NCBI GenBank assembly: GCA_922989275.2
Contig: OV277861.1
Span: 18,872,540-18,936,539, forward strand
Length of the DNA stretch: 64,000 nucleotides
Origin: Gari tellinella
Lineage: Eukaryota > Mollusca > Bivalvia > Cardiida > Psammobiidae
Direction of reading: 5' to 3'
The notes beneath the pieces were generated by a model. It saw only the letters and a program-made list of their open reading frames with translations, did no database searches and had not been told where the DNA came from. The position numbers and the translations under genes are program-made. Each line of letters starts with the position of its first letter. Position 1 is the first letter of the stretch. Below, piece after piece: positions 2,715-63,990 of the stretch.

Positions 2715-4029
2715 ATCCTTTAAAATATTAAAGACATATTTTGGATATTTAGGGTCCTGGCCCCTTGCAGATTGTATGATGCAAGTCCCATAATTATTAT
2801 AACTGTATAGAAATATAGTTTGGATTTTCACTCTGTGTTGATCCTGATCATAGTATAACTAGGTTGCTCTAGACATAATTTAGATAAGAATTGTGAAATA
2901 CATTGTAATCAATAATCTTAAGGATCAGGTGAAATTAAGGGATATACCGGTAGTGAAAGTGACAAAGGAAAACGAGAAAGTGTTAAAGATATATCCGTCC
3001 ATGCTGAAAATTTTAACATGTATGGTATTAATTTTCTCGTATGTCATAGATTATGAAATCTAAAGCCGTGATCAACCTTCAAAAGCAGCCAAAAAGGTCA
3101 ATGTAAGGCGTGAAAAATCATGATAAGAATTGGCTTTCAATGAAACGTTTTTCATGATATAGAGAGAATAGATATATCTATTTTTGTCACTTGATAATCA
3201 TTCAATAGTAGTTAGATTTGTGTTTTTACTTTACCTTTTTGAAATGACATCATTATTTCTAGGCAGAAAGCAGGTAGTTGCAGGATAAAAGTAATCAAAG
3301 GAGCTTTCTGCATTCAGTAACTTTTGTCCAGCATTTGAAACTGCATTTGAAACTTTTAAATAGCCTCATGCCATTGTCATGTTATTGTGGTTTAAATGCA
3401 ACATTTATTGCCAAGTTTTTATTGTTCCCCCCATGTTTTAACCCTTTCTGTAAACCACTGGAAATCAGCTAGTATAATCATGTATATTACTGGTATGCAA
3501 ACAGTGTAGCTAGACCCTGATCAGTGTCGGCATTGTTTGTATAAGCAACCACCTGCCTTAAACATCTGATAATTAGAACAATTTAGTGGTCGCAATAGAG
3601 AGGCTTTACTGTAAAGTGCAAACAAAACTTGCAGGAAAAAGAAGAGGGGTTAAGGAACTTGCAAGAAGGCTTGAAACACCACAATCAATTGTCTTTAGTG
3701 TCTGGTCGAAGTATAATCAGTTAGGCAATGACATAAAAAACTGGGATTTGATGTTTCACAGACACATACTCTCTCACCATAAATTTGGGAATTCTACTAA
3801 TCTGTACAACATCAGACAAGATAAAGTAGCATTTTACCGATGCAGCAGAGCCGCTTTTACCCTGTGGGGGTAATGACTAATGTACTTAATTGGCAATAGA
3901 ATACAAGACTGAAAAGAGAAAGATACAATATTGTTCTTCAGATTCAATTGGTGACATTGCGGTGCAGACAAATTGCAGAACTCCAAATTAGATTACTAAA
4001 ATTTTATACTCTTTCTTATAATCTCGACC

Positions 4030-4890: not shown

Positions 4891-5097
4891 CAGTACAACC
4901 TCTCTATTGGAACCACTAAAAAGATTAGCTAATTGATTATATAAAAGACAGGTGACAGCTTAAAGCATGGTAACAGTAAAACAGAAAGCTCCTAAAGGAG
5001 CTTTCTGTTTTACTGTCACCTTGCTTTAATTAAGCAGTCACCTGTCATAATTGCTTAATTAACACAATCTTGTGGTTGTTAAAGAGAGGTTTTACTG
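4891..5097. mobile_element. TA-H hairpin element (reference copy)
   Basis: 207 bp flanked by TA on each side. Ends CAGTACAACCTCTCTATTGG and TTAAAGAGAGGTTTTACTG are inverted repeats; TA duplication and CAGT-type ends fit Tc1/mariner/Tigger-like elements. The core near the middle has arms CTTAAAGCATGGTAACAGTA and TACTGTCACCTTGCTTTAA with tip GAAAGCTCCTAAAGGAGCTT. Flanks AAGACAGGTGACAG and GCAGTCACCTGTC form an outer stem around the core. No coding capacity. Confidence 0.82.
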
Positions 5098-10451: not shown

Positions 10452-10492
10452 AGCTAAAGTTGAAACAGCAATTTGCTGTTTCAACTTTAGCT
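10452..10492. repeat. Perfect 41-bp palindrome
   Basis: Two exact 20-bp arms (AGCTAAAGTTGAAACAGCAA) around one T. No flanking element ends were recognised. A frame reads through it by chance on both strands. Confidence 0.85.
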
Positions 10493-13496: not shown

Positions 13497-14068
13497 GTTG
13501 AAAGCTTTCTTTTAATTTGTGTTATTCGTGCTACTTAAAACTTCAGTGGCAGAAACGTTTGACTTGAGGCAGGCGCGGTATTAGTGCCATCCAGTCCAAT
13601 AATCTCAGGAACGAGTCTGTTACAATCATGCTCCGAGAGAAAATTTCAAGTGTTTTCAAGTATGCAATTGAATCATCATTTCTCAAAATGCCATAACTGA
13701 ATTCTTTTTGAAGATTAAACTGTCAAAAAGGGCCGCTTTATGAGCGTTAGGGATGAAATTTATGCAAGAATACGGTGCTTCCGAAAGCAGTAGTTTCTGC
13801 ATCAAACTGATATCAATCAAACGTTGCATTATTAGAAGACTAAATAGCAAAGACCTCCAGCCTCGTACCCCGGGCCTTGTCAGGCAAGCCAGCTAAAGAT
13901 TTATGTACATGCAGGCTGAAGTTTTAGAGGCGTTTTCAGTTAAAACATTTTCTGTTTTAATAGAAGCTGGTTCCAATTTTTAAGAGTGAACATTTATAGA
14001 TGGATGGACAGTCCACAAGATGGGTTGTTGTTAAATGCAGGACAAAATACTGAAGAAATCAGGCTGTT

Positions 14069-14143
14069 GCCTAATGCAAGACAGATGTAATACAGAAAGC
14101 TCCCTTTGGGAGCTTTCTGTATTACTTTTGTCTTGCATTAGGC
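14069..14143. repeat. TA-H palindrome with three mirrored changes
   Basis: GCCTAATGCAAGAC pairs GTCTTGCATTAGGC (usual GCTTAATGCAGGAC), and GTAATACAG pairs CTGTATTAC (usual GTAATGCAG). Only a short AGAT/TTTT segment is unpaired. Confidence 0.8.
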
Positions 14144-14807
14144 AGCCACTGGTAATTTTAGAGCTTGATTTAATATATTTTTTATTGAATATTGATTCTA
14201 TACAAGCTGTTTTGTTGTGAGGTTCTCAGTTTGAAAGATGTTGTTGTCTTATCAGTTACTCATAAGTAATGCCCTTACATTCTCATTTGATCATTCCATT
14301 CAATGTTTGCAAGAATTCAGTATCTACCAATTAGAGCTTATATATATGATCTATTTGTCTAATAGCGATTTATTACATAATTATAGCAATGGTAACTGAT
14401 ATTGTGGCATCTCATCTGGGTCTGTCTTGACTGTCAATGTCAATTTCTGGTGAAGCAAACTTTTAAAGCTTAGGCATTCCTGGATTAGGGACCATAAATC
14501 TCTGACCATGTCAAACGCATGCGGTGTCGATGTTAAGCTGATCATTTTCTTCATGTCAGCTCAAATCCTTAAGGATTAGGCAAGAAACCAGAGTTTCAAT
14601 TTAAAGAGAATACCAGTAGGATTGTTAAGAAGATGACAAACCTTCATAATTAGTCCGAGGGTATTTTTTAACCACTATTGTATTGGCTGTCTCCTTCTGT
14701 CTTCTTGTAACCATAATATTCCCAATGAAACCGTAACAGTATTGTATCTCTTAAATGATTCCTAAAATAGTATTCATTATCACTGCTTTTGAGACAGGTG
14801 GAAGATT

Positions 14808-14880
14808 TTTAATGCAGGACAAAAGTAATGCAAAAGCTCCCTGAAAGGGAGCTTTTGCATTACTTTCGTCCTGCATTAAA
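14808..14880. repeat. TA-H palindrome with mirrored 2-bp deletion
   Basis: ATGCAAAAGCTCCC pairs GGGAGCTTTTGCAT; other copies read ATGCAGAAAGCTCC, so the same two bases are missing in both arms. Outer arms TTAATGCAGGACAAAAG and CTTTCGTCCTGCATTAA. A flank GAGACAGGTGGAAG/CAATCACCTGCC surrounds it. Confidence 0.82.
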
Positions 14881-15940: not shown

Positions 15941-16012
15941 CTTAAAACAAGATGACAGTAAATCAGAAAGCTCCCAAAGGAGCTTTCTGCTTTACTGTCA
16001 TCTTGTTTTAAG
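15941..16012. repeat. TA-H palindrome (AAGATGACAGTAAA type)
   Basis: CTTAAAACAAGATGACAGTA to TACTGTCATCTTGTTTTAAG, tip GCTCCCAAAGGAGC; AAGATGA/TCATCTT is mirrored relative to the reference copy. Confidence 0.8.
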
Positions 16013-17139: not shown

Positions 17140-17392
17140 TTAACCCATTACCCCATAGTCTATTTCCAGTATTGAAGATAGGTGTCCACTAAAGCAGGTT
17201 GAAAGTAAAGCAGAATGCGCCTCTAAAGGCGCATTCTGCTTTACTTTCAGCCTGCTTTAAGCTACCATCTGCTAGAATATAGAAAATATTTTCTATGGGT
17301 CATACTCATAACAGTGTAAATTGGAACTATTTTCTTCAGTGGAAGAACAAATTAGAGGCGTAAAAAGGCGTATTTATGGTGGAATGGGTTAA
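17140..17392 (+). mobile_element. TTAA-A hairpin element (reference copy)
   Basis: 253 bp between TTAA borders. Left end reads TTAACCCATTACCCCATAG; right end GTATTTATGGTGGAATGGG then TTAA (other copies have TATGGGGTAATGGG), so the ends are inverted repeats of about 14 bp beginning CCC inside a TTAA duplication, as in piggyBac-type elements. A palindrome of about 74 bp near the left end starts AAAGCAGGTTGAAAGTAAAG and closes CTTTACTTTCAGCCTGCTTT. A 90-bp unique segment (GCTACCATCTGCTAG ... GGAGGAATAAATTAAAGGCG in the family) follows. There is no coding capacity, so movement would need a transposase from elsewhere. Plus orientation is defined by this copy. Confidence 0.85.
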
Positions 17393-17840: not shown

Positions 17841-18033
17841 CAGGGCTCCAGATAAGAAGGATATTTCCAAACAAGTACAACATTTTCTCGCCCATTTCAG
17901 CACCAAATCCTATGGTGTTACTACTCATTAGAATCGTCTCAAAGAGACGATTCTAATGATTAGTGACACCATAGCGTTTAATGCAGAAATAAAGATTTCA
18001 GTTTTTGAAAAACCACACTTATTTGGAGCCCTG
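17841..18033. mobile_element. HT-H hairpin element
   Basis: 193 bp, CAGGGCTCCAGATAAGAAGG to CTTATTTGGAGCCCTG; AAATA on both sides. Core tip CGTCTCAAAGAGACG. Confidence 0.82.
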
Positions 18034-19972: not shown

Positions 19973-20316
19973 GAACCATTGTGTCTACTGGTCCACTGGA
20001 TCGTGAGACGGTTTCCCAGTACAATCTACGAGTCACGGCTACAGATGGCATACAGTCCTCACAGTGCCTCGTTCGAATCAACCTTCTCGACAAGAATGAC
20101 AATGCACCTCATTTCACTCAGTCCTTCTACTCCTTTGATGTGGATGAGGACACCTTGATAGGGACTACTGTGGGGAGTGTTCGCGCACATGACCCTGATG
20201 AGGGCCTTAATGGAAGTGTACAATACTCTCTTCAGTCGGCATGGGCTAAGAGCACATTTGAGCTGGACCCTATCAAAGGCACTTTTAGACTTGGCAGCGT
20301 GCTGGACTTTGAAGAG
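19973..20316 (+). CDS. Cadherin gene, internal exon B (partial gene)
   Basis: 344-nt exon following a CTCTAG acceptor and ending before a GTAAAA donor. The first two bases complete the split glycine codon from exon A, giving INQDG-TIVSTGPLDRE. It finishes one EC repeat (LDRE motif, YNLRVTATDG with the conserved ATD, then DKNDNAPHF linker) and carries most of the next (FDVDEDTLIGTTVGSV, AHDPDEGLNGSVQYSL with the calcium-binding DPDEGLNG, then FELDPIKGTFRLGSVLDFEE). It ends in phase 0. A run of antisense open frame over the same DNA is a shadow. Skipping this exon would shift the frame because exon A ends in phase 1 and exon C starts in phase 0. Confidence 0.95.
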
Positions 20317-20364
20317 GTAAAATTATGCCCATGATTAACTGTCAAAACACAAAAAGAAGCCATT

Positions 20365-22830: not shown

Positions 22831-23082
22831 TTAACCCATTACCCCGTAGCCCGTTTCTAGTATTGAATATAGGTGACCACTTAAAGCAGGTTGAAAGTAA
22901 AGCAGAATGTGCCTTAAGGCACATTCTGCTTTACTTTCAGCCTGCTTTAAGCTACCATCTGCTAGAATACAAAAATTATTTCATATGGTACATGTCTATG
23001 ACAGTATAAATTGTAACTATTTTCTTCAGAGGAGGAATAACTTAAAGGCGTAAAAAGGCGTATTTATGGGGTAATGGGTTAA
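22831..23082 (+). mobile_element. TTAA-A hairpin element, well preserved
   Basis: 252 bp with exact TTAA at both borders and intact ends. The core tip is GTGCC TTAA GGCAC, mirrored relative to GCGCC/GGCGC copies. Confidence 0.88.
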
Positions 23083-23401
23083 GAGTTAACTGTATTTGTA
23101 CTTTGAAATCAGTACATACCAATTAGGACATATGCAAGAGGTCTTGATTCGGTATTTTTTTCCAGTTTTTATTTCGGTCAGCATTTTAATGATCAACGTC
23201 ATTGAGTGACGTGTTTAGAGTTTGTAGTATACTTCAGATGAACTGTTTATTAAAAACCTCTTTCTAAAGATTAAACTTTGTCTGAAAATGTGCTGTTTCA
23301 CTCTGGTATTCTTGTTAAAATGTGAACTTCTACTTGTCACAAAGTCCAGGTTTCTGTCACTGTCATTTTGCCCCCTGTCTAGCCACAATTTTTGCATGTT
23401 A

Positions 23402-23612
23402 TAGTCAAATACAACCTATATAAATTGGCATTTCATTGAGGAAGTGAGAAGGTAATAAAAGTGAGGTGGCTGCTAAATGCAGGTTAAAAACAATGCAGAA
23501 AGCTCCTGCAGGAGCTTTCTGCATTGTTTTATCCTGCATTTAGCAACACTTGTATAAAAGAGACTGCTTATGGGCATTGTATTGAATGGATGCTTCAATA
23601 CAGGTTTTACTG
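23402..23612. mobile_element. TA-H hairpin element
   Basis: About 211 bp: left TAGTCAAATACAACCTATAT, right ATACAGGTTTTACTG before TA. Core 23472-23544: GCTAAATGCAGG pairs CCTGCATTTAGC and ACAATGCAG pairs CTGCATTGT, both mirrored variants; tip GCTCCTGCAGGAGC. Confidence 0.75.
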
Positions 23613-25095: not shown

Positions 25096-25155
25096 TTAAC
25101 CTTATAGTAATTCCCCTATAGCTTGCTTTCAGTATTAAAACAGGTGGCTGCTTAA
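25096..25155 (+). mobile_element. TTAA-A left-end fragment interrupted by TTAA-B
   Basis: TTAACCTTATAGTAATTCCC and the AGTATTAAAACAGGTGGCTG flank resemble the left part of TTAA-A up to the TTAA that precedes the core, where a TTAA-B copy begins. The sequence after that insertion (AAGCACTCTGAATATAAGC) is only weakly core-like. Confidence 0.5.
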
Positions 25156-25399
25156 CTCTTTCCTCCCTGAAACTTTAAATGGACAATTCCAGTTTCCATT
25201 TAAGTCTAGTCCATTTCTGACTTTTGGGGGTTGTTTTTGTCAATGTTTGGCATTATGACAAACAGTGAAGACCTGATCAGAGGGCTCTTTGGAGCCCTCT
25301 GATCTGGGTCTTCACTGTTTGCATAGGACAAGTGTACTATTCACATGTACACTGTTTGCAAATGATGCCAATATGCGGGACTAGGGTTCAAAGGGTTAA
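25152..25399 (+). mobile_element. TTAA-B hairpin element inserted in TTAA-A fragment
   Basis: 248 bp, TTAACTCTTTCCTCCC to CTAGGGTTCAAAGGG then TTAA. The core tip is short (GGGCTCTTTGGAGCCC). Left host flank GGTGGCTGC. Confidence 0.85.
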
Positions 25400-26153
25400 A
25401 GCACTCTGAATATAAGCAGAGATCTCCTTGTAAAGGAGATTTCTGCTTAAAGTCAGATTGTTGGGAAAGTTTCCCATTGCTCTTTATCAAACAGTGTTAA
25501 GCAAGGCAGAAAGCTCCTAAAGGAGATCTGTTTGCATTAGCACTACATTAATCATTCAGGACTTCAGAGAAGACCTAGCTAATGTTTCCTGCATTAACCA
25601 AGCAATCTACAGTCTTTAAAGAGCCATAAAATTATCTTTCTTAATTTATTTATTGCTTAACACAATTTTGACAGCTTTCAAATATAGATTTCAATTTCTG
25701 TTTACATTTTTGTTAGGCAGGTTACAAAAGCTGTTGTCAAAATTCTTCGTAACTTATAATTCCCAATGCATGTGACACTATTCAATATTAAAATTCATGT
25801 ATGCACCACTTGTGTATCAAGTTGACACCTAAGTTTTGCATACAATATTGGTGATACATGTTTGGGCTGTCAAGTTTTGTCAAAGGAAATAGTTGCAGGA
25901 CCCAGGGTACAGATAAAGAAATGGGGCCAAGGTTTATCTGTGTGCTGAGATGTATTGATCTGATTGTGAGATTTGACAAGTAAAACTCCTGTAATGTATT
26001 GGCCTGATTAGCAAGCATTACCATATAGGCTAATTGATCCTATGTATACAGTTAAATGTATTCAGCAACCAATCCATCTATGAAGGAATAGAAGGATTTC
26101 AATAAAGTCAATAATCTAAAAGTTTTGGGATCTTTAAAGACCGTTGGTTGCTT

Positions 26154-28860: not shown

Positions 28861-28931
28861 TTAACGCATTATAAAAGTAATGCAGAAAGCTTCTATAGGA
28901 GCTTTCTGCATTACTTTTATAATGCATTAAG
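28861..28931. repeat. TA-H palindrome with mirrored outer arms
   Basis: CGCATTATAAAAGTAATGC pairs GCATTACTTTTATAATGC; other copies have GCAGGACAAAAG, so the change to ATTATAAAAG is present on both sides. Tip GCTTCTATAGGAGC has one mismatch. Confidence 0.78.
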
Positions 28932-29450: not shown

Positions 29451-29518
29451 ATGCATTACAAAAGTAAAGCAGAAAGCTCCCAAAGGAGCTTTCTGTTTTA
29501 CTGTTGTTATACAATAAG
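29451..29518. repeat. TA-H palindrome, 170 bp after exon C
   Basis: GCATTACAAAAGTAAAGCAG against CTGTTTTACTGTTGTTATAC; tip GCTCCCAAAGGAGC. Partly decayed. Confidence 0.7.
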
Positions 29519-32790: not shown

Positions 32791-33055
32791 AGGATCCAGA
32801 TAAGGGGAGTATTTCAAAAACTAAAATCTTTATTTCTGCATTAAACCCTATGGTGTCACTACTCATTAGAAGGTGCAGTATGATTGAGAAAATGTTGATT
32901 TGTTCAGTTTACTCCCCCTTTTGCTGGAACCCACCCTATGTTGTCCCTACTCATTAGAATTGTCTCTTTGAAATGATTCTAATGAATAGTAACAAAATAG
33001 ATATTTGGTTGAAGAAAAAAAAAAAAGTTCTCGAAAACAACTTCCATTATTTTGA
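32791..33055. mobile_element. Two damaged HT-H copies in tandem
   Basis: First 32791-32936: AGGATCCAGATAAGGGG left end, TATGGTGTCACTACTC then core deleted. Second from 32935: CCCTATGTTGTCCCTACTC with tip TGTCTCTTTGAAATGA and arm AATGAATAGTAACAAAATA. Confidence 0.65.
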
Positions 33056-33400: not shown

Positions 33401-33475
33401 GTCTAATACAGGATGAAAGCAATGCAGAAAGCTCCCTTTGGGAGCTTTCTGCATTGCTTTTGTCCTGTATTATGC
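33401..33475. repeat. TA-H palindrome with mirrored changes
   Basis: CTAATACAGGATGAAAGCAA to TTGCTTTTGTCCTGTATTA: AATACAGG/CCTGTATT and AGCAATGC/GCATTGCT are both paired variants. Tip GCTCCCTTTGGGAGC. Confidence 0.78.
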
Positions 33476-35224: not shown

Positions 35225-35363
35225 CAGGGCTGTAACAGATAAGAGTAAATTGAACAAATCCAACAGTTTCTCACTCATTTCATCACCAAATCCTATGGTG
35301 TTACTACTCATTAGAAATGCAGAAATAAAGATTTTATTTTTTTGATACTCCCCTTATCTGGAG
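35225..35363. mobile_element. HT-H element, core collapsed
   Basis: CAGGGCTGTAACAGATAAG to CCCCTTATCTGGAGG. The left arm TATGGTGTTACTACTCATTA runs into AGAAATGCAGAAATAAAG, so the tip and entire right arm are gone while both flanks remain. Confidence 0.75.
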
Positions 35364-37362: not shown

Positions 37363-37532
37363 CAGTTGAACTTCGATATCTCGAACTCGTTTAGGTCGAA
37401 CATACCCGTATTTCAAAGTTTAACTTTGAAATACGGGTATGTCTGACTTAACGAGCATGAAATAACGCAGTTCATGTGTCGACAAATCGAACAGTTCAAA
37501 TTAAGCGAGTTCTAGATACCAAAGTTTGACTG
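37363..37532. mobile_element. Tigger-like short element with 41-bp palindrome
   Basis: 170 bp flanked by TA. Ends CAGTTGAACTTCGATATCTC and ATACCAAAGTTTGACTG, inner ends CGAACTCG/CGAGTTC. Core 37401-37441 is perfect: two 20-bp arms (CATACCCGTATTTCAAAGTT) around one T. CAGT...ACTG ends beside TA suggest the Tigger/pogo group. Confidence 0.78.
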
Positions 37533-38852: not shown

Positions 38853-39011
38853 TTAACTCTTATCCTGCGGTGATGTCGTCTGCTTCGAAACTGTCATCTG
38901 CTAAGTTTGTTAAATTTAGACTTATACATTTTTTAAGTAAAGAAACCTAAAGAAGAGTGTCAAACAGTTTGCAAACATCAATAAAGTCGCGACCAGCAGG
39001 CAAAGGGTTAA
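38853..39011 (+). mobile_element. TTAA-C element with palindrome precisely lost
   Basis: 159 bp with exact TTAA borders (TTAACTCTTATCCTGCGG; CAGCAGGCAAAGGG then TTAA) and recognisable TTAA-C flanks (GTCGTCTGCTTCGAAACTG). Where other copies carry a 65-bp core, this copy reads only GTGTCAAACAGTTTGCAAAC: one copy of the outermost 11 bp remains. It sits inside a TA-H element (TAACTTAA before; TTAATGCAAGATGAAAG after). Confidence 0.8.
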
Positions 39012-39732
39012 TGCAAGATGAAAGTAATGCAAAAAGCTCCTGCATTAAGATTTACTTTACTTCCTCAATCATTAGTAAAAAATGCTTAACACAAGATTAG
39101 GTTAACTGTTTATGATGATAATGCTGGCAAGTTTTCATCAACCTTCAACATTTTAATCTCTTGAGGAAACGGATACACAACTGGGTTCTGTGTTCGAGGA
39201 TTATACTCAGTAAAGTCAAATGGAAATCTCTTAATCCATGTAGCTCTTCCCATGATGAATCTCTCTGTTTAGAAAAAATATAGTTTAATTTTAACAAGTT
39301 GTCATTGTGATATAAATATGATATATTCTTTCCAAATTTCTGTTTATATACAATCTTGAGTTTCAAACAGCTGGAGTTCAAAAGAGATGCAGTGTTGCTC
39401 GGCATCAGGGTTGCGGCATTGGAGTAATCTGGATCCCGGCTTTTTGCCAAAATCATCAATATAACGAGTACAAGAATAGTTAAAACATATAACCACTTAA
39501 TGCAGGACATAAATAATGATCTGCATAATATCCATTCAATGCTTTTTAATTGGCCATTTAACATATGGCTGAGAATTCCCCAGAAACAGGTTCAATTGAA
39601 TTAAGATGTTTTTTACAGGAACATTTGCCCTGCATATTGCAGTGTTCTCTTGTGAGCTCTTGGTTAATTGTGAATGAGTGCTTTTACTATATTGACCTTT
39701 TGAGTCATCGGTTGAAATAAAAATTATCATTA

Positions 39733-42146: not shown

Positions 42147-42639
42147 TTAACCCATTTCCCCATAGTTTGTTAAGTATTGAAGATTGGTGATCACTAATTC
42201 CTAAAGCAAGTTGAAAGTAAAGCCTTATGGTGCATTCTGCTTTACTTTCCGTCCACTTTAACCCTTTGAACCCTAGTCCCGCTTATAGGCGTCCTTTTCA
42301 AACAGTGTACATGTGAATAGTACACTTGTCATGTGCAAACAGTGAAGACCCAGATCAGAGGGCTCCGAAAGGAGCCCTCTGATCAGGGTCTTCGCTGTTT
42401 GTCATAATGCCAAACATTGACAAAAACAACCCTTAAAAGTTAGAAATGGACTAGACTAACATGGAAACTGGAATTGTCCATTTGAAGTTTCAGGGAGGAA
42501 AGAGTTAAGCTACCATATCTGCTAGGATATTGAAACAATATGTTATGGTGCATGAATAATTATTGCAACTGTACTAATAGGAACTATTTTCTTTGGTGAA
42601 AGAATAAATTAAAGGCGTGTTTATGGGGAAATATGGTAA
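42147..42639 (+). mobile_element. TTAA-A element split by a TTAA-B insertion
   Basis: Left end TTAACCCATTTCCCC, damaged core, then at the CTTTAAGCTACC site of the family a complete TTAA-B copy sits between two TTAAs; the host resumes as GCTACCATATCTGC and ends GTGTTTATGGGGAAATATGG. Other TTAA-A copies supply the empty site. Confidence 0.85.
42258..42508 (-). mobile_element. TTAA-B hairpin element inside TTAA-A
   Basis: 251 bp, TTAACCCTTTGAACCC to GGAGGAAAGAG then TTAA, placed in the middle of the TTAA-A copy spanning 42147-42639 with the TTAA duplicated. Confidence 0.88.
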
Positions 42640-43031: not shown

Positions 43032-43219
43032 CAGGGCTCAAGATAAGGGGAGTATTTCAAAAACTAAATCTTTATTTTTGCTTTAAACCCTGTGGTGTCA
43101 CTACTCATTAGAATCGTCTCGAAGAGACGATTCTAATGAGTAGTAACACCATAGAATTTGGTGTTGAAATAAGTGAGAAAATGTTGGATTTGTGCAGTTA
43201 ACTCTTATCTTGAGTCCTG
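43032..43219. mobile_element. HT-H hairpin element
   Basis: 188 bp, CAGGGCTCAAGATAAGGGG to CTTATCTTGAGTCCTG: the CTCAAGAT/ATCTTGAG change from CTCCAGAT is present at both ends. Flanks GTGCAAC and GTACAAC are a near duplicate. Confidence 0.82.
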
Positions 43220-43433: not shown

Positions 43434-43647
43434 TTAACCCTTAGACCGCCAAATAAATTGTCGTCTGCTATATTTCTCGTCTGCTTCAAGTTTCAAAGTG
43501 CTTCAAAGTTGCTCAAAATTGCTGAAAATGTTGTCCGAGTGTCAAACAGCTTGGATCCGGATGAGACGCCGAGTTACTCGGCGTCTCATCTGGATCCAAG
43601 CTGTTTGCATATGGAGCTATAGTCGTGAGTGGCAGGCTAAGGGTTAA
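43434..43647 (+). mobile_element. TTAA-C hairpin element (reference copy)
   Basis: 214 bp between exact TTAAs. Ends TTAACCCTTAGACCGCCAAA and GTGGCAGGCTAAGGG then TTAA give inverted termini. Palindrome 43546-43610 or so: CAAACAGCTTGGATCCGGAT to GGATCCAAGCTGTTTG, tip GACGCCGAGTTACTCGGCGTC. The left flank contains three short repeats of a TTCAAAGT/TGCTCAAAATTGC type. Its reverse complement matches the 63290 copy with only a handful of differences by eye. No coding capacity. Confidence 0.87.
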
Positions 43648-44045: not shown

Positions 44046-44618
44046 TAAAAACAACAACAAAAAACATAACACATATCTATGGTAATTAAGTCACAAAATA
44101 GGTCTTTGAGTAAGTCAGAATTCAAGAATTTCACATTAGGTAGAGGGGTCATATGGCATAATTTTGTTTTGAAGAAGGGACAAACTTAGCCATATATGGT
44201 GCATAGGTGGAGGAAAGGGTTAAATGTTCCAAAAGGGAAGCAATCAAGGTTTGCACTGGTTAAACGTCAGAGTGCTTGTTTCTGGTGATGTTTCTCATGA
44301 CTGTAAGTATAATTTTTTATCAGACTTGACTTTAAGATTTGTTAACATTGCTTATAAACATGGAAATCTTTCTGGTACTGTTATGTAGAAAGTGGAGCAA
44401 TTTGCCGTGAAATTAGCGGGTGGTGTGGGGAAAAAGTAAGCAAGCACTAGTAAAACACATATGGCTGAGATCTGCTAGTGTTAGGCTAGTTATTACTGAA
44501 CAGTCAAGCCTTCATCAAAACCTTTTCATAATTCCTCCACAAACATGCTTTAGGATCACTTTGCTAACTGATGGCATTTTTAGAAATCTCGATGCTTCCT
44601 TACTGATGGCAAAGTAGT

Positions 44619-45573
44619 CACAGGGACCCGGCACGATTGATTTTTGAGAGAAAAAAATTGTCCGAAAGTATATATAGAGACAAGGGGTATAACTGATAGT
44701 CAGTATATTCACACTCTATCTCGACAAAACCTGGCATAACACTTATAATAATTGATGAAACGACACCCTTTTTGCATTTCTGTCTAGCTAATATTATATT
44801 CTTCCATAAAAACATAACCTAAAACCAACTGTAAGCATGTACTTTCAACAGTAACTACGTCTACTGACTGAAGTCACCGTTTTTCGGAAAACGGGACAGG
44901 TGTTCGTTCACAGCCAACACAGCATTGACCACTATTGTACGCTTGTTTAGGCTTTAATATCGAGCATTACAGTCTTACAGTTCCATGGATGTACGTTTTT
45001 GACACCGATCAAAGCTGTTTTATTTTCAAATCATTGCCGTATCAACAACAAAGTCACATGTTCACATCACAGAGACCCGACACGATTAATTTTTGAGAAA
45101 TAAAATTGTCAGAAGCTTTATATAGAGTCTCTGTAATACTTTCTGACAATTTTTTCTCTCAAAAATCAATCCTGTCGGGTCCCTGTGGTCCAAAACGTGT
45201 ATCTATGGAACTATATGACTGTCATGCTCGATATTACCGTCTAAACAAGCGTTAAGTAGTGGTCAATGCTGTGTCGGCTGTGAACGAACACCTGTCCCGT
45301 TTTGCAAAAATCGGTGATTTCAGTGACTAGACGCTGTTACTGTTGGAAGTGCCTGCTTACAGTTGATTTTAGGTTATGTTTTTATAAAAGGGTATTATAA
45401 AAGCTAGACAGAATTGCAAAAAGTGTGTCGTTTCATCAATTATTATAAGTGTTATGCCCGGTTTTGTCGAGATAAGGTGAGAAAATACTGACTATCAGTT
45501 GTACCCCTTGTCTCTATATATACTTTCTAACAATTTTTTTCTCTCAAAAAATCAATCGGGTCGGGTCCCTGTG
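44619..45573. mobile_element. 955-bp hAT-like double palindrome (foldback element)
   Basis: Bounded by an exact 8-bp duplication AAAGTAGT (44611-44618 and 45574-45581). Outer ends CACAGGGACCCGGCACG and CGGGTCGGGTCCCTGTG are inverted. About 385 bp of left arm (to about 45003) is the imperfect reverse complement of about 385 bp of right arm (from about 45189): for example GACAGGTGTTCGTTCACAG against CTGTGAACGAACACCTGTC. The arms contain no usable frame. In the centre (45069-45187) sits a second pair of the same ends, so the structure is a hairpin within a hairpin. The 8-bp duplication fits hAT; family naming is inference. Confidence 0.85.
45069..45187. mobile_element. 119-bp short version nested in the foldback element
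   Basis: CACAGAGACCCGACACG to CTGTCGGGTCCCTGTG with inner arms AAATTGTCAGAAGC/CTTTCTGACAATTT; ends match those of the 955-bp element. No clear duplication flanks it, so it may be the original short element around which the longer arms arose. Confidence 0.75.
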
Positions 45574-46075
45574 AAAGTAGTCAGGTGAAAGCTTGTAGCA
45601 GAGTGAGAGTAAAGCAGAAAGCTCATATAGGAGTTATTTGGCATTTGATCAAGATCCAGATTGTTTGTCACTAGAATTGGTTATCTGCAAAATATAGAGA
45701 AGAAATAGCCATCAAAATTAAAGCACAATGCAGTTTTAACTGATGATGTTTATAATAAAATACTCAGCACTTAAACGGTTAAGCTCCTGCAGTGCCAGAA
45801 ACAATTGAATGATTGAAAAAAAAATTGGGGAACCAATAGAAATAGTTTAAAAAGAATTAGTTTAAAAAAGATTAAGTATTTGAAGGTGGGGTACTTAAAG
45901 TAGTCAGTGTGAACTAAGGTCATACAGGGCATAGAATGTAAATCTCTTATCTAATTTGAAATAATGTTTTGTTAATTAAAAAAACTCTCCAAACATCTAC
46001 AGTCAAAACTAATATATTAAGGGATCACAGAAAAGAAGTTATATATATTAATGTAGGTCTTCAGAAGAGGTATCA

Positions 46076-46568: not shown

Positions 46569-47393
46569 CACTAGGCTTTGAAGTAAAGCCTTTTCCATGC
46601 CTTTATATTCATTTATGCTTTATCCCAGTACGAATTGAAAACATTCTGACAAGTTGCTTAAAGCAGGCTGACAAGAAAAGCAGAACTATATATATATCCA
46701 TAAGGTGGTTCTGCTTTACAGTAAATCAGTCTGATTTAAATAATAATAATAAAAAAAAACCACTGAAAATATCTATGAAGAAAAGGGTTCATTGCGACAC
46801 ACAGTTACTAGCTGTCCAGATTGTTAATTTAATATTTTTTAACCCATTTCGTAACTTGAATTTTGGAATATATTTAATAGATCTAGATCAGATGCTAAAG
46901 TGATTTGAAAAATTATTGCAGTGGCTTTTCAAGCAGGCATCAGTTTAGAAGGGATGTTTGATAAGAACTTGAGATGTTAAAAACAATAACTGTGAACCCA
47001 CACAACTCACTGCCAACAAGTTGTCAATTTGTAATGCAAATTTCATGTTCCCACCACATTCCGCCAGTATATATTTACTGCTATAGATTTTTCATTGGAA
47101 AAATTCGTTTTATTGCTGGTGAAAAACAGCGGAGGTTAACAAGAGCTCTCTGTATCATAATCCATCATCAGCTAACAGGAAACGTGTAACAAATTAACAG
47201 TGAAAACAAAAAATATAGCTTACATGACCCTAGCTGTATGCTTTTTACGATGGTATACTTTTTAATTTTAATGAATCGCTCTTTATAAACTTGTAGTTGT
47301 TATAAAAAATGATAACTTTTCAATTTCTGTGTTAGCTAGCTAGACAGGTCATTTATTGATGAAGAACAGTGTTATTGAAATATATGTGACGGC

Positions 47394-47644
47394 TTAACTC
47401 TTTCCTCCCTAAAACTTTAAATGGACAATACCAGTTTCCATTTTAGTGTAGTCCATTTCTGACTTTTAAGGGTTGTTTTTGTCAATGTTTGGCATTATGA
47501 CAAACAGTGAAGACCCTGATCAGAGGGCTCCTTTCGGAGCCCTCTGATCTGGGTCTTCACTGTTTGCACAGGACAAGTGTACTATTCACATGTACACTGT
47601 TTGAAAATGACTCCTTTATGCGGGACTAGGGTTCAAAGGATTAA
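47394..47644 (+). mobile_element. TTAA-B hairpin element inside a TA-H element
   Basis: 251 bp with exact TTAA borders. Left flank TGTGACGGC and right flank TGCAAAACAAAAATAAACC are the two sides of a TA-H core start (GGCTTAATGCAGGACAAAAG in intact copies). Confidence 0.85.
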
Positions 47645-48408
47645 TGCAAAACAAAAATAAACCAGAATTTTAGATTGATCAGGAGCTTTCTATATCACTT
47701 TTGTCCTATAATGTTCTATACAAAAAGTGTGTATCAGTTCTCTTTTGAGAGGCAAAATAACACAAATTTACAATACAATAGATTTGTTTTATTATAGCAA
47801 AAGATTTTGAAGGGCTGCATGCATGTTAATGAAATGCATGTACATTGTAAACAAAAGCATGAATTTCCAGCGGATCATTTAGAGAATTGATATTTTTTGC
47901 AAATTAAATGCCTGCTTAATATATAGTTGTCTTAAAACTTATAAAGTTTTTACATAATTATTTACTTGTAGCAAGATGGTAAATCATTACAAACCTATTG
48001 CTTTTCCAGCTTAACCATATTATGATCTCTTTATTTGCTTTGAGTTTCTAAAAATGTGACTTTTGATGCTGGCATTCAGTTACAAAGTCACAGGTGTTAT
48101 TGCAGTCAGAATTGTCTTGTTTAGTGTTAATAAAAATCTCTAGAGCAATAACTGTAACTGGATGATGTCTTGTCTGTACTGAAAACATGGCCATTCAAAT
48201 GTTTCAAGAAGTATATTTTGCCAAGAAGATGGATTGAGACATCACAAAATCACCGTTTCTTGTAACAGGTGAGGAACAAGCAAATTTTGTTTTTGCCCAA
48301 GCTGAAGAAAGAAAATTTGCATGGCTGACATTTATCCAGTTTTAATTAAACAAGATGTTTACCTGGGCTAAGGAGCTAAGCCTTTAACATGCTGAGAAAA
48401 CTTTACTA

Positions 48409-48614
48409 CAGTAAAACCTTTCTATTACGACCACTTAGTTATTTTGTGATTTTTGTGATTAAGGCACTGGTGGCGGCTTAAAACAAGGTGAAAGTAAAAA
48501 CAGAAAGCTCCTCAGGAGCTTTCTGTTTTGCTTTCACCTTGCTTTAAGCTGCCAGCTGTTTTTCAAACTATGAAATAGCATTATTTTAGTGGTCATAATA
48601 AAGAAGTTTCACTG
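48409..48614. mobile_element. TA-H hairpin element, well preserved
   Basis: 206 bp flanked by TA. CAGTAAAACCTTTCTATTAC to ATAAAGAAGTTTCACTG, with CGACCACT/AGTGGTC continuing the inverted ends. Core CTTAAAACAAGGTGAAAGTA to GCTTTCACCTTGCTTTAAG, tip AGCTCCTCAGGAGCT. Confidence 0.83.
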
Positions 48615-53171: not shown

Positions 53172-53239
53172 GCTTAATACAGGACAAAAGTAATGCAGAA
53201 AGCTCCTGCTTTCTGCATTACTTTTGTCCTGTATTAAGC
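53172..53239. repeat. TA-H palindrome, tip shortened
   Basis: GCTTAATACAGGACAAAAGT to ACTTTTGTCCTGTATTAAGC, perfectly paired including the AATACAGG variant; tip GAAAGCTCCTGCTTTC has lost part of one side. A left end CAGTCTAACCTGTATAC lies at 53105. Confidence 0.8.
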
Positions 53240-53513: not shown

Positions 53514-53588
53514 TGCTTAATGCAGAACAAAAATAATGCAGAAAGCTCCTATAGGAGCTTTCTGCATTATTTTTGTTCTGCATTAAGC
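53514..53588. repeat. TA-H palindrome, perfect with mirrored changes
   Basis: GCTTAATGCAGAACAAAAAT pairs ATTTTTGTTCTGCATTAAGC; GAACAAAAATAATG replaces GGACAAAAGTAATG in both arms. No unpaired position seen. Confidence 0.83.
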
Positions 53589-54285
53589 AGTTGCTGGTCT
53601 TAAAAGATTATAACAGTACCTTATAGTTAAGTGTTGATTAATTTACGATTGACTGTATTTCGAAATAGCTGAGTGGTCTGACAGAGGCTGGGTTTGATTG
53701 CAGTTGTCGTGGAGGTTTTTAGGGATTTATCTTCAACAAACCAGACTGGAATTTCAAAGATTCGATTTTATCATTTATAAAAGAGGCCGTATGGGTGGTG
53801 CTTTAGACAGATTCAAAGTTGCAGATGTTGCAGTCGGCTGGTGGAATTTGTAAAACAGATTAGTCAGTGTCCAATATGGGCCAGTAGTCGAACATTATCG
53901 GGAGAACATGTTTATACAGCTTCATGTCTGCGAGTCTCTAACATGTGAGAAATAAAAAAAATCACCTATCTCTGAAATGAAACCCATGTTTTTTCTCTTG
54001 ATTATTAAAGTGATATCGAATTTGAACAATAAGAAGTTTTTACGATGCTTGCAATTTCTTTTGACACATTTGATGTCTGTAACATAACTTTGTGAGTTTG
54101 ATAGAAACTTATAATCATCCAGACTATACTCCTTGGTTCTTTAATATACCGTCAGTAAAAGGTTACAGTACTTTGAATATTGAACAAATCTTTATGGTTA
54201 TCTATCGTTTAAAAAATATCAAATGTTTTCAAATTCTCAGAATAACTTGTTCATCTTTTAATGTACAGAAATATTATCAGAGTGG

Positions 54286-54392
54286 CAAACAGTTTGGAGC
54301 CAGATCAGGCCCCACTTTCAGTGGGGCCTGATCTGGCTCCAAACTGTTTGCATAGGTCTTCAGTATTTCAACATGTGCATGTTCAGGGTTAA
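54286..54392. mobile_element. TTAA-C related element with mirrored core substitutions
   Basis: Core 54286-54350 is a perfect 65-bp palindrome: GGAGCC in the left arm and GGCTCC in the right, where others have GGATCC in both, and a tip GGCCCCAC TTTCA GTGGGGCC. The right end GTTCAGGG then TTAA is at 54389-54392. Confidence 0.72.
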
Positions 54393-54661
54393 TCTTTAAG
54401 GATTTATGTATAACTGTGAGAGAATCTGACAAGTCCCATAATTTACAGGCTGTGGAAGTACATGTGCTGCCTTGTTAGGACTGATAGTGGTAGTTTATCA
54501 TTGCTGTTGGAACAGACTAACAAAATGATACAAAATAGCATGTAGGGGAAATTTTATTTGGTAGCCTCAGAACATTGCTGAAAGTTTGTTTCAAGTGAAC
54601 ATGCTTTTAACCCTTACCCTTAAGTATAGCTTATTTTCAAACTTTGTAGACAGGTGCCTGC

Positions 54662-55109
54662 TTAACCCATTACTCCATGAATATGCCTTTAATTTATTCC
54701 CCCCATTGTAGAAAATAGTACACTCATAATAATTATAATAGCAATAATAATATGTACCCAGTAGAAATAATAATAAAGACTTTATTTCAAGAGGGTAACA
54801 CATTTAGTACAGACAATAAACTTATCTCCCTTGTGGCCCTCAAAAGAATGTACAATATTTACAAAAATGCACAAACAAAGAACATAGTATTTGCAAAGTA
54901 TTTCAATAGTAACAAACATGGCTAATTGTGCATTATAAAAAATACTTTATAATATCCTCGCAAAATTATGGTAAATTGAAACTGTCTGAAATTAAAGCAG
55001 AATGCACATTAAGGGGCATTGAGCCATTGACTGCTTTACTTTCATCCTGCTTTAATTAAGTGGTCACCTATCTTCAATACTAAATCCAGGCTATGGAGTA
55101 AAGGGTTAA
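54662..55109 (-). mobile_element. TTAA-A element carrying a LINE-tail insertion
   Basis: TTAACCCATTACTCCATGAA at the left and GGAGTAAAGGG then TTAA at the right are about 450 bp apart. The extra length is a retroposon 3' end (54727-54974). The core is degraded (GCAGAATGCACATTAAGGGG). Immediately left, 54608-54661 looks like another TTAA-A left end reading up to CCTGCTTAA. Confidence 0.7.
54727..54974 (-). mobile_element. LINE-type retroposon 3' end with TTATTATT tail
   Basis: On the minus strand the fragment runs CTCTTGAAATAAAGTCTTTA and then into TTATTATT-type repeats, the shape of a 5'-truncated non-LTR retroposon with a polyadenylation-like AATAAAG and a simple-repeat tail. It interrupts a TTAA-A copy, so it arrived later. 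No coding part remains. The clade cannot be told. Confidence 0.6.
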
Positions 55110-57565: not shown

Positions 57566-57733
57566 CAGGGTATAAAAATCTTTATTTCTGTATTAAACCC
57601 TATGGTGTCACTACTCATTAGAATCGTCTCTTCGAGACAAATCTACTGAGTAGTAACACCATAGGATTTGGTGCTTAAATGAGTGAGAAAATGTTGGATT
57701 TGTTCAATTTACTCCCTCTTATCTGTAGCCCTG
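57566..57733. mobile_element. HT-H element with left flank deletion
   Basis: CAGGGTATAAAAATCTTTAT to CTTATCTGTAGCCCTG; core right arm partly decayed (GAGACAAATCTACTGAG). Confidence 0.72.
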
Positions 57734-58280: not shown

Positions 58281-58516
58281 TTAACCCATTACCCCATAGC
58301 CCGTTTCTGGTTTTGAAACAGTTGGCCAATTAAAGCAGGTTGAAAGTAAAGCAGAATGCGCCTTAAGGCGCATTCTACTTTACTTTCAGCCTGCTTTAAG
58401 TTACAATCTGTTAGAAAATAGATTTTTTTTCTTGTATTACATATTCATAACTATTTCTTTCAGTGGAGGAATAAATTAGAGGCGTAAAAAGGCGTATTTA
58501 TGGGGTAATGGGTTAA
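58281..58516 (+). mobile_element. TTAA-A hairpin element next to a second, different palindrome
   Basis: 236 bp with exact borders. Directly after the right TTAA comes GCAGGATGAAAGTAAAGC, a core arm, so this copy probably landed in the TTAA at the start of another element's core. Confidence 0.83.
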
Positions 58517-58545
58517 GCAGGATGAAAGTAAAGCAGAAATCTCAC

Positions 58546-59137: not shown

Positions 59138-59351
59138 TAGTTAAACCTCTCTACTACTACCACTCAACAGGGCTATATATATATATAATTGATTTAATAA
59201 AATACAGATGACAGCTTAAAACAAGGTGAATGTAAAACAGAAAGCTCCTAAAGGAGCTTTCTGTTTTACGTTCACCTTGCTTTACAAGCAGTCACCTGCC
59301 TTTAAAACACAGGACAATTAACAGAAATTAGTGGTTGTAATATTTTTACTG
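59138..59351. mobile_element. TA-H hairpin element
   Basis: 214 bp: TAGTTAAACCTCTCTACTAC to TTGTAATATTTTTACTG before TA, with an AT run inside the left flank. Core arms CAAGGTGAATGTAAAACAG and CTGTTTTACGTTCACCTTG carry GAATG/CGTTC nearly mirrored. Confidence 0.8.
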
Positions 59352-59799: not shown

Positions 59800-60056
59800 T
59801 TAACCCGATACCCCATAAATATGCCTATTAACGCCTTTTAATTTATTCATATACTGAAGAAAAGACTTTCACTTTATACAGCCATGAATATGTATGATAA
59901 GAAATATTTTCTATGTTCTAGCAGATAGTAGCTTAAAGCAGGCTGAAAGTAAAGCAGAATGTGCCTTAATGCGCATTCTGCTTTACTTTCAACCTGCTTT
60001 AAGTGGTCACCTGTCTTCAAAATGATAAACATGTAGGCTATGGAGTAATGTGTTAA
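59800..60056 (-). mobile_element. TTAA-A hairpin element
   Basis: 257 bp with TTAA borders (TTAACCCGATACCCC; GGAGTAATGTG then TTAA). The core is nearly perfect apart from GTGCC/TGCGC at the tip. Confidence 0.84.
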
Positions 60057-62025: not shown

Positions 62026-62269
62026 TTAAACTCTTTACTCCATAGAAGCGACTTTTAGTAGATATAATTTATTCCTCCACTGAAGAAAATAGTTCCAATT
62101 TATACAGTCATGAATATGTATTGTAAGAAATATTTTAGCAGATGGTAGCTTAAAGCAGGCTGAAAGTAAAGCAGAATGCACCTTAGGGTGCATTCTGCTT
62201 TACTTTTAACCTGCTTTAAGTGGTCTCATATATTTGATACTTGAAATAGGGTATGGAGTAAAGGGTTAA
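62026..62269 (-). mobile_element. TTAA-A hairpin element
   Basis: 244 bp, TTAAACTCTTTACTCC to GGAGTAAAGGG then TTAA. The tip GCACC TTA GGGTGC is a third mirrored variant of the family. Confidence 0.82.
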
Positions 62270-63289: not shown

Positions 63290-63503
63290 TTAACCCTTAG
63301 CCTGCCAGTCACGACTATAGCTCCATATGCAAACAGCTTGGATCCGGATGAGACGCCGAGTAACTCGGTGTCTCATCCGGATCCAAGCTGTTTGACACTC
63401 GGACAACATTTTCAGCAGTTTTGAGCAACTTTGAAGCACTTTGAAACTTGAAGCAGACTAGAAATATAGCAGACGACAATTTATTTGGCGGGCTAAGGGT
63501 TAA
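63290..63503 (-). mobile_element. TTAA-C hairpin element inserted in a TA-H element
   Basis: 214 bp, same length as the 43434 copy and inverted relative to it. The left flank GAGCTTTCTGAA and right flank GTTGTCTGTACCTGTC are the core end and post-core sequence of a TA-H element, whose terminus GACAGGTTTTACTG then TA follows at about 63564-63579. Confidence 0.87.
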
Positions 63504-63918: not shown

Positions 63919-63990
63919 CTTAATGCAGGATAAAAGTAAAGCAGAAAGCTCCTTTAGGAGCTTTCTGCTTTACTTTTATCCTGCATTAAC
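63919..63990. repeat. TA-H palindrome, perfect
   Basis: CTTAATGCAGGATAAAAGTA to TACTTTTATCCTGCATTAA with AAAGCAG/CTGCTTT in both arms and tip GCTCCTTTAGGAGC. Near the window end. Confidence 0.82.

What the first reader, a model, noticed from the sequence alone, without database searches (positions are those of the whole stretch)
14808..14880. Mirrored substitutions and indels in both arms of individual palindromes
If arms of a palindrome mutated independently, each copy would gather mismatches. Instead many copies differ from the family by changes present in both arms. Here a 2-bp deletion is mirrored (GCAAAAGCTCC/GGAGCTTTTGC). At 14069-14143 three paired changes, at 53514-53588 GAACAAAAATAATG/CATTATTTTTGTTC, at 28861-28931 ATTATAAAAG/CTTTTATAAT, at 33401-33475, 23472-23544, 53172-53239 and 63919-63990 further pairs. 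At 54286-54350 GGAGCC/GGCTCC replaces GGATCC/GGATCC. This implies that one arm is copied onto the other (template switching across a cruciform, or hairpin intermediates repaired from one strand), making the palindrome a self-correcting object.
Basis: partly seen in the sequence, partly recalled or inferred. Interest (0 to 1): 0.88.

Follow-up and report, generated by a model that had tools for sequence, protein, structure and literature searches.

The report
Mirrored hairpins inside dead transposons
This stretch of animal DNA is dense with near-perfect hairpins, many of them inside short repeated elements that look like mobile DNA; changes mirrored in both hairpin arms are real in the most diverged family, but they were most likely inherited from many older source elements rather than copied from arm to arm at each site, although in-place copying in the oldest copies cannot be excluded.

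Summary
The palindromes are real and far beyond chance: 86 inverted repeats against 1, 2 and 2 in Markov simulations. Those whose surroundings could be aligned lie inside short repeated elements that look like MITEs. Families differ in their terminal inverted repeats (TIRs) but carry an internal hairpin with arms of about 32-36 bp and a tiny loop. Mirrored changes are a strong excess in the most diverged family (F1a, including 14808-14880; permutation p=5e-5), weaker in F3a and F3b, and not evident in F2 or F1b. Among relatives with element flanks under 30% diverged, arm differences are nearly all one-sided: 6 mirrored to 88 single-arm; among deeper relatives 78 to 131. Arm mismatches carried by the source elements mostly persist in F1b (13 of 17 copies). 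An unmatched indel occurs in 34 of 90 pairs; I found one clear mirrored indel. So "self-correcting in place" is not supported for the younger families. Against my reading: in F1a the two ends of one insertion mismatch at 29.6% but its hairpin arms at 6.1% (10 of 23 copies), so in-place arm copying in old copies stays open. No genome-wide copies could be reached.

The parts
14808..14880 (.). F1a hairpin of the finding, with the mirrored 1-bp deletion (GCAAAAGCTCC/GGAGCTTTTGC)
   Evidence: One element end aligns weakly (score 8.0), the other is not recognisable (score 2.5).
14068..14144 (.). F1a hairpin with three mirrored substitutions and two one-sided ones
53514..53589 (.). F1a hairpin with arms identical over the 34-nt model span and two mirrored G>A changes
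   Evidence: arms 0/33 mismatched while TIR5-TIR3 is 10/20, with TIR3 below the detection threshold
28861..28930 (.). F1a hairpin with adjacent mirrored GG>TT; the variant is also in one arm of 29451-29518
33404..33472 (.). F1a hairpin with mirrored TACAG and GCAATG, plus one-sided changes
23473..23543 (.). F1a hairpin with mirrored changes and a one-sided 1-nt indel
53172..53239 (.). F1a hairpin with mirrored TACAGG
63919..63990 (.). F1a hairpin of the AAAGCAG type, arms identical over 34 nt (63920-63953 / 63956-63989)
54285..54351 (.). F3a hairpin with mirrored GGAGCC and GGCCCC
4959..5029 (.). F1a AAGCAAGG subfamily member; the others are at 15941-16012, 48477-48548 and 59215-59284. Mirrored variants shared within the group.
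   Evidence: mean flank distance inside the group 0.42 against 0.56 among the other copies
43543..43608 (.). F3a hairpin, sister of 63329-63394: both share a mirrored T>C and nearly identical flanks
   Evidence: Flank 3/136 different, hairpin 2/65 different, both differences one-sided
63329..63394 (.). F3a sister hairpin of 43543-43608
22831..23083 (+). Intact-looking F1b element: TTAACCCATTACCCC... ...GGGGTAATGGGTTAA, about 250 bp, hairpin at 22880-22951
   Evidence: Alignment of 21 copies, 18 kept; TTAA at both ends
17140..17392 (+). F1b element copy
59800..60056 (-). F1b element copy
47389..47645 (+). F3b element, TTAAC-type ends (right end reads GATTAA in this copy), hairpin at 47501-47566; lies next to what reads by eye as a decayed F1-type arm
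42256..42510 (-). F3b element inserted at the TTAA at the base of an F1b hairpin
17841..18033 (+). F2 element with CAGGGCTCC-type ends; hairpin arms 17905-17979
57595..57669 (-). F2 hairpin whose loop reads GAA, the inverse complement of the TTC found in five relatives, while the arm asymmetry is kept

Best explanation
The mirrored changes are most likely inherited: the palindromes sit inside short repeated elements with terminal inverted repeats, and the copies would descend from many diverged source elements whose hairpins had already changed in both arms. Shown here: families with different element ends carry a hairpin with arms of about 32-36 bp; in F1a and F1b symmetry drops sharply at about 35 nt from the loop; hairpins vary less between relatives than the rest of the element; closer relatives differ almost only by one-sided changes, deeper relatives by many mirrored ones as well. 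Inferred: in the mobile source lineages the paired core was kept because it helped the element (transposition or amplification) and was re-matched by template switching between the arms, which would explain adjacent-base mirrored changes and the mirrored deletion; after insertion the two arms then decay mainly independently. Untested: what the hairpin does, and which step of copying favours it.
For: Nearest-relative pairs: flank divergence under 0.10, 0 mirrored and 9 single-arm (7 pairs); 0.10-0.30, 6 and 79 (22 pairs); above 0.30, 78 and 131 (29 pairs); mirrored share under against above 0.30, p=2.5e-9. In F1b own arms differ as much as arms of different copies (9.8% against 10.5%); F2 shows no pairing (p=0.18). 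Source-borne asymmetries persist: F1b position 11 T/C in 13 of 17 copies with letters in both arms; F2 position 3 T/C in 7 of 10; F3b position 16 T/A in 5 of 10. Mirrored variants shared by related copies: the AAGCAAGG group of four (flank distance 0.42 against 0.56) and the sisters 43543/63329 (flank 3/136 different). In the youngest set arm mismatch is near the flank rate: seven close F3b copies have nearest-relative flank distances of 2.7-9.2% (mean 5.1%) and 11/219 arm mismatches (5.0%), of which 4 are the source-borne T/A (sums by hand). Private mirrored 5 against private single-arm 67 in F1b+F2+F3a+F3b. One clear mirrored indel against 34 of 90 pairs with an unmatched indel, some at arm edges or in rearranged copies. 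Hairpins vary less than element flanks in every family (mean hairpin/flank distance to the nearest relative: F1b 0.084/0.195, F2 0.085/0.256, F3b 0.054/0.151, F3a 0.136/0.357, F1a 0.174/0.439). Sharp symmetry edge: F1a 10% mismatch at 31-35 nt then 32% at 36-40; F1b 4% then 62%.
Against: In F1a copies with both TIRs recognisable (10 of 23) the TIR pair mismatches 58/196 (29.6%) but the arms 20/328 (6.1%), p=7e-13; F2 38/147 against 29/301, p=1.6e-5 (9 of 12 copies), though F2's two TIR consensus sequences already differ at 2 of 17 sites and its arms at 2. Pure inheritance with equal decay predicts equal mismatch unless TIRs were already mismatched at insertion. F1a flanks are nearly saturated (mean pair distance 0.56 among 19 copies), so a tree of sources cannot be drawn, and mirrored state does not track flank distance (Mantel r=0.12, p=0.18). 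Within F1b, hairpins diverge less than TIRs (64/1263 against 55/642, p=0.004). At the source-borne F3b and F1b mismatches some copies are symmetric (F3b 3 T/T and 2 A/A of 10; F1b 4 T/T of 17). Two of 10 F2 loops (GAA, AAA) are inverse complements of loops in relatives (TTC, TTT), a possible template-switch footprint.
Confidence: 0.5

Rival explanations
1. In-place arm correction: after insertion, replication template switching across the hairpin (or repair of extruded hairpins) would copy one arm onto the other, so old copies stay symmetric and carry private mirrored changes.
For: F1a arms 6.1% mismatched against 29.6% for the TIR pair of the same insertions (10 of 23 copies). Mirrored excess in F1a after thinning subfamilies, 27 against 9.2 expected. 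Adjacent mirrored GG>TT at 28861 and a mirrored deletion at 14808. Two of 10 F2 loops are inverse complements of relatives' loops. Single-arm differences to the nearest relative are about equal in F1b (79 over 18 copies) and F1a (92 over 23) while mirrored ones rise from 6 to 67, as in a mutation-correction balance.
Against: 13 of 17 F1b and 7 of 10 F2 copies keep a source-borne mismatch. Private mirrored changes are few (5 against 67), implying at most about 27% of mutations corrected under the simple model. Unmatched indels in 34 of 90 pairs. Unbiased correction would not lower the divergence of a single arm, yet hairpins vary less between copies than flanks. The sharp edge at about 35 nt, shared by F1a and F1b, is not expected of random tracts.
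Confidence: 0.3
2. Selection on the hairpin in the host (for example as a small-RNA precursor or a DNA structure with a role) would keep each copy paired through compensatory changes.
For: Lower variation of hairpins than of the rest of the element in all five families; sharp unit edge.
Against: 91 arm pairs in 64 kb makes selection on each copy implausible; 21 strong single arms without a partner are also present, several of which read as arm deletions; no Rfam family reached its gathering score. Small RNAs were not tested.
Confidence: 0.12
3. The mirrored pattern would be chance plus mutation hot spots such as CpG.
For: The F1b position 30 states are at a CpG and occur in all combinations (5 C/C, 6 T/T, 6 mixed, 1 with a gap); the private F1b mirrored change at 62149 is at the same CpG.
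Against: The F1a arm consensus has no CpG, and 27 mirrored states against 9.2 expected, with pairing p=5e-5.
Confidence: 0.08

Closest known systems
Template switching between short inverted-repeat arms / quasipalindrome correction (PMC8794818: abstract and the section on footprints of compensatory mutations read; PMC8604942: abstract and outline read; PMC3820800: search listing only)
   Same: Arm homogenisation, multi-base compensatory changes and loop inversion are the described footprints; adjacent mirrored changes, one mirrored deletion and two possibly inverted loops are seen here.
   Different: Here the arms belong to repeated element copies, and most mirrored changes cannot be placed after insertion; differences between closer relatives are one-sided.
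MITEs of the Tc1/mariner, piggyBac (TTAA) and hAT kinds (end motifs recalled, not tested against a library)
   Same: Short, non-coding, TIRs at both ends, many copies; F1b and F3b end in TTAA, F1a in TA plus a Tc1/mariner-like TIR, F2 in CAGRGCTCC-like ends.
   Different: Each family has an additional internal near-perfect hairpin; similar hairpins (F1a and F1b) sit in elements with different ends.
Palindromic MITE MADE1 / hsa-mir-548 (PMC1784062: search listing only; MADE1's size and arm length are recalled)
   Same: Near-perfect hairpin of similar size made by transposon DNA.
   Different: MADE1 is the whole element; here the hairpin is internal to an element of about 200-255 bp.
Conserved V domain carried by a MITE (MER6, PMC6887750: abstract and outline read)
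   Same: A conserved internal module in a MITE with an origin different from its ends.
   Different: The abstract does not describe the V domain as a hairpin, and derives it from SINEs.
Arm-to-arm gene conversion in sex-chromosome palindromes (PMC8981503, PMC3723533: search listings only)
   Same: Arms kept alike by copying.
   Different: Those are large palindromes converted in place; here arms are about 32-36 bp and in-place copying is not shown.

Membership tests
MITE (non-autonomous DNA transposon) | Short element with TIRs at similar positions in many copies | tested here: met
   F1b about 250 bp, 18 copies kept of 21 aligned; F3b about 255 bp; F1a ends mostly about 100-108 bp from the axis, both above the null in 10 of 23 copies and at least one in 20 of 23 (the 20 counted by hand)
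MITE (non-autonomous DNA transposon) | No coding capacity | tested here: met
   Only three ORFs of 110 aa or more in the whole window, none overlapping an element listed here
MITE (non-autonomous DNA transposon) | Target-site duplication | tested here: inconclusive
   TTAA at both ends of F1b/F3b copies, and F3b nested at a TTAA; no empty sites available; F2 duplication not established
piggyBac superfamily (F1b, F3b) | TTAA target plus a related transposase | tested here: inconclusive
   TTAACCC...GGGTTAA ends in F1b, TTAAC...GTTAA in F3b; no transposase was found in the window (one search lists three ORFs; the three scanned gave a cadherin and two without a Pfam match)
Tc1/mariner superfamily (F1a) | TA target and Tc1/mariner TIR, related transposase | tested here: inconclusive
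   TACAGTCAAACCTGTATTAA-like ends on both sides; no transposase found; TIR class recalled
hAT superfamily (F2) | 8-bp target duplication and CAG-type TIR | tested here: inconclusive
   CAGRGCTCC-like ends; no 8-bp duplication seen by eye in the two copies with both ends matched (17841-18033, 43032-43219)
In-place template-switch correction of palindromes | Arm mismatch lower than that of comparable same-age sequence | tested here: met
   F1a 6.1% against 29.6% for TIR pairs, if TIRs matched at insertion; weak in F1b (8.8% against 13.2%, p=0.048; paired p=0.14)
In-place template-switch correction of palindromes | Recent private changes mirrored in both arms | tested here: not met
   5 private mirrored against 67 private single-arm in F1b, F2, F3a, F3b; F1a 3 against 19, its 3 all from the misaligned deletion copy at 14808
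In-place template-switch correction of palindromes | Source-borne mismatches resolved | tested here: not met
   13 of 17 F1b copies and 7 of 10 F2 copies unresolved; F3b 5 of 10 unresolved
In-place template-switch correction of palindromes | Change at one locus between individuals or species | not testable with these tools
   No second genome or genome-wide copies reachable

The most novel reading that the evidence does not exclude
In the oldest family the 35-bp hairpin core of dead transposons is a self-templating object: arm-to-arm copying at each locus erases or mirrors new mutations, so the core decays about five times more slowly than the element's own terminal repeats and outlives the rest of the element as a symmetric fossil.
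Probability: 0.27. Interest if true: 0.8.

Novelty: new variant of a known kind. Interest (0 to 1): 0.5.

Why it matters
A natural set of dozens of hairpins of different ages in one genome, each with its own internal controls (terminal repeats, element flanks, outer palindrome), makes it possible to measure how often one arm of a short palindrome is copied onto the other in an animal germ line. The present data already bound that rate for the younger families (about a quarter of mutations at most under a simple model) and show an unexplained slow decay of the hairpin core. If the slow decay holds genome-wide, it bears on how MITEs amplify and on how hairpins that later become small-RNA genes keep their pairing.

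Tried and rejected
Pattern scans for hairpin arms in genome contigs and viral contigs found 0 matches; only exact matches to those patterns would have been found. Rfam (gathering scores) and tRNA scans of the window found 0. The organism was not identified; the cadherin exon gave unnamed close hits and two named, more distant mosquito ones.

Considered and rejected: chance palindromes (of its 86 rows 9 have spacers of 20-194 bases and are not tight hairpins); bacterial repeats (the window has an animal cadherin exon and only three ORFs of 110 aa or more). Ascertainment by symmetry: copies were re-collected by arm sequence and by flank sequence. Of the 20 flank hits without an arm beside them, 7 are the opposite element end of known F1b copies; others read by eye as deletions or nested insertions, and some (9997, 30736, 49620, 63513) I could not classify. 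By eye none was plainly a hairpin worn away by point changes alone, but very old ones could be missed.

Weak points of my own analysis. The F1a element alignment uses 23 of the 30 detected pairs; left out were 6 rearranged or strongly decayed pairs and 58550. None of the 7 gave two clear ends. In one search arms were placed by best match over small shifts, which lowers their mismatch a little; TIRs too were placed by best match within a window. F3b's TIR query strings differ from each other at 1 of 10 sites and F2's at 2 of 17, which inflates their TIR mismatch. The F3a flanks are barely alignable apart from one sister pair. One search's p for F1b is void. One search computed P(14 or more of 17 | 0.2) = 6e-8, but its own count is 13 of 17; by hand that is about 9e-7, and the 0.2 comes from an equilibrium estimate made by hand, so I do not lean on it. 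One search stopped with an error after 19 of 23 rows and was replaced. The evidence that the mirrored deletion at 14808 was inherited is indirect: no second copy with it was seen in the window. The loop inversion reading is weak, since F2 loops vary (TTC 5, TTT 2, TCC 1, AAA 1, GAA 1) and GAA is one change from AAA.

Full report
What is there. The window is animal DNA: three ORFs of 110 aa or more, one a cadherin exon at 19981-20331 (Pfam PF00028, E=7e-20; best solved relative CELSR1). An ungapped axis scan finds 86 inverted repeats against 1, 2 and 2 in three Markov-1 simulations; 9 of the 86 have spacers of 20-194 bases. Searching by arm sequence rather than symmetry gives 91 arm pairs (53 F1, 14 F2, 24 F3) and 21 strong single arms, several of which read as having lost the partner arm by deletion. 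By subfamily the pairs are 30 F1a, 23 F1b, 14 F2, 10 F3a and 14 F3b.

What the palindromes are. Where the surroundings can be aligned, the hairpins lie inside short repeated elements. F1b is about 250 bp, TTAACCCATTACCCCATA...TATGGGGTAATGGGTTAA (18 copies kept of 21 aligned). F3b is about 255 bp with TTAAC...GTTAA ends. F1a has the end motif TACAGTCAAACCTGTATTAA mostly about 100-108 bp from the axis, above the null at both ends in 10 of 23 copies. F2 has CAGRGCTCC-like ends. The superfamily names (piggyBac-like, Tc1/mariner-like, hAT-like) are recalled from end motifs and not proven. F1a and F1b arms are alike while their ends differ, so the hairpin behaves as a module (inferred). In F1a and F1b symmetry ends sharply about 35 nt from the loop: mismatch 10% to 32% in F1a and 4% to 62% in F1b between the bins 31-35 and 36-40, with 44% for random pairs under the same aligner (22 F1a and 15 F1b copies entered).

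Is the mirrored pattern real? Yes in F1a: own-arm mismatch 13.8% (median 8.8%) against 23.4% between copies, p=1e-4, 30 pairs. Without 6 rearranged pairs it is 8.1% against 19.0%; thinned for evident subfamilies, 19 pairs give 7.3% against 15.2% and 16 pairs 7.6% against 13.7%, each p=5e-5; the 16 carry 27 mirrored states against 9.2 expected (8 of the 27 are one common T/C site and 2 are end gaps). F3a p=7e-4 and F3b p=0.01 are weaker; F2 shows none, p=0.18; F1b shows none, own arms 60/615 mismatched (9.8%) against 10.5% between copies.

When did the mirrored changes arise? Comparing each copy with its nearest relative by element flank, mirrored and single-arm differences are 0 and 9 in pairs under 10% flank divergence (7 pairs), 6 and 79 at 10-30% (22 pairs), 78 and 131 above 30% (29 pairs). 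So differences between closer relatives are one-sided and mirrored ones belong to deep splits. Source-borne mismatches are still there in 13 of 17 F1b copies (position 11), 7 of 10 F2 copies (position 3) and 5 of 10 F3b copies (position 16). At that F3b site 3 copies are T/T and 2 A/A, and in F1b the other 4 are T/T, so some resolution, by mutation or copying, has happened. An unmatched indel occurs in 34 of 90 compared pairs, including edge and rearranged cases; the 14808 deletion is the only clear mirrored one I found. Sisters 43543 and 63329 (flank 3/136 different) share a mirrored change, and four AAGCAAGG copies share several and are closer to each other in flank (0.42 against 0.56) than the rest.

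What does not fit. The two ends of one element are also an inverted repeat of the same age. In F1a the ends mismatch at 58/196 in the 10 of 23 copies with both ends above the 95% null, while the arms of those copies mismatch at 20/328 (p=7e-13; every one of the 10 in the same direction). F1b gives 40/303 against 51/577 (p=0.048, paired p=0.14; 17 copies), F3b 7/70 against 9/221 (p=0.07; 7 of 8 copies), F2 38/147 against 29/301 (p=1.6e-5; 9 of 12 copies); F3b and F2 are inflated because their two ends already differ in consensus. Pure inheritance explains the F1a result only if ends were already mismatched at insertion or if hairpins mutate less. Hairpins vary less than flanks in all five families (hairpin/flank ratio 0.33-0.43 from the means), and in seven young F3b copies singletons are 7/456 in the hairpin against 32/1022 in the rest, p=0.08. 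F1a flanks are too saturated (mean pair distance 0.56) to show most subfamilies, and mirrored state does not follow flank distance (Mantel p=0.18; the T/T against C/C site p=0.29). Of 10 F2 copies with a readable loop, one (57595-57669) reads GAA and one (17905-17979) AAA, the inverse complements of TTC (5 copies) and TTT (2 copies); this may be loop inversion, or ordinary substitution in a variable loop. Loop inversion and arm homogenisation are the footprints of template switching reported in yeast (PMC8604942, abstract read) and in RNA genes (PMC8794818, abstract and one results section read).

Reading. I commit to inheritance from many diverged sources with independent decay afterwards (0.5). 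In those sources the hairpins were probably kept paired by usefulness to the element and by occasional arm copying; both are inferred. In-place copying is the main rival (0.3), bounded in the younger families at roughly 7-13% of mutations, upper 95% limits 22% and 27% under a simple either-way model (2 mirrored to 55, or 5 to 67), and open in F1a. Host selection on each copy is unlikely at this density.

Literature. In the listings shown I saw no title or abstract on internal hairpin modules shared by MITE families or on arm correction in MITEs; this covers only those searches, the rows listed and that open library.

Noticed in passing
42256-42510, 58281-58517, 47389-47645, 25114-25403, 54608-54721: TTAA-ended elements (F1b, F3b) read as nested at the TTAA at the base of F1-type hairpins, which shows insertion order and supports a TTAA target.
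   Followed up: partly
44618-45574: A separate large inverted repeat: 387 aligned bases at 88% identity between 45188-45574 and 45003-44618.
   Followed up: no
3497-3609: An F1a-type flank lies next to an F3-type hairpin, as if hairpin modules had been exchanged between element families.
   Followed up: no
57595-57669 and 17905-17979: Loops GAA and AAA in two F2 hairpins, inverse complements of the TTC and TTT of relatives.
   Followed up: partly
32843-32871, 35288-35316, 39008-39040: Hairpins with one arm largely or wholly missing.
   Followed up: partly
19981-20331: Cadherin-domain exon, closest solved relative CELSR1.
   Followed up: partly
10452-10492 and 37400-37442: Two perfect 20-21-bp palindromes with 1-nt loops that were not assigned to the three families.
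   Followed up: no
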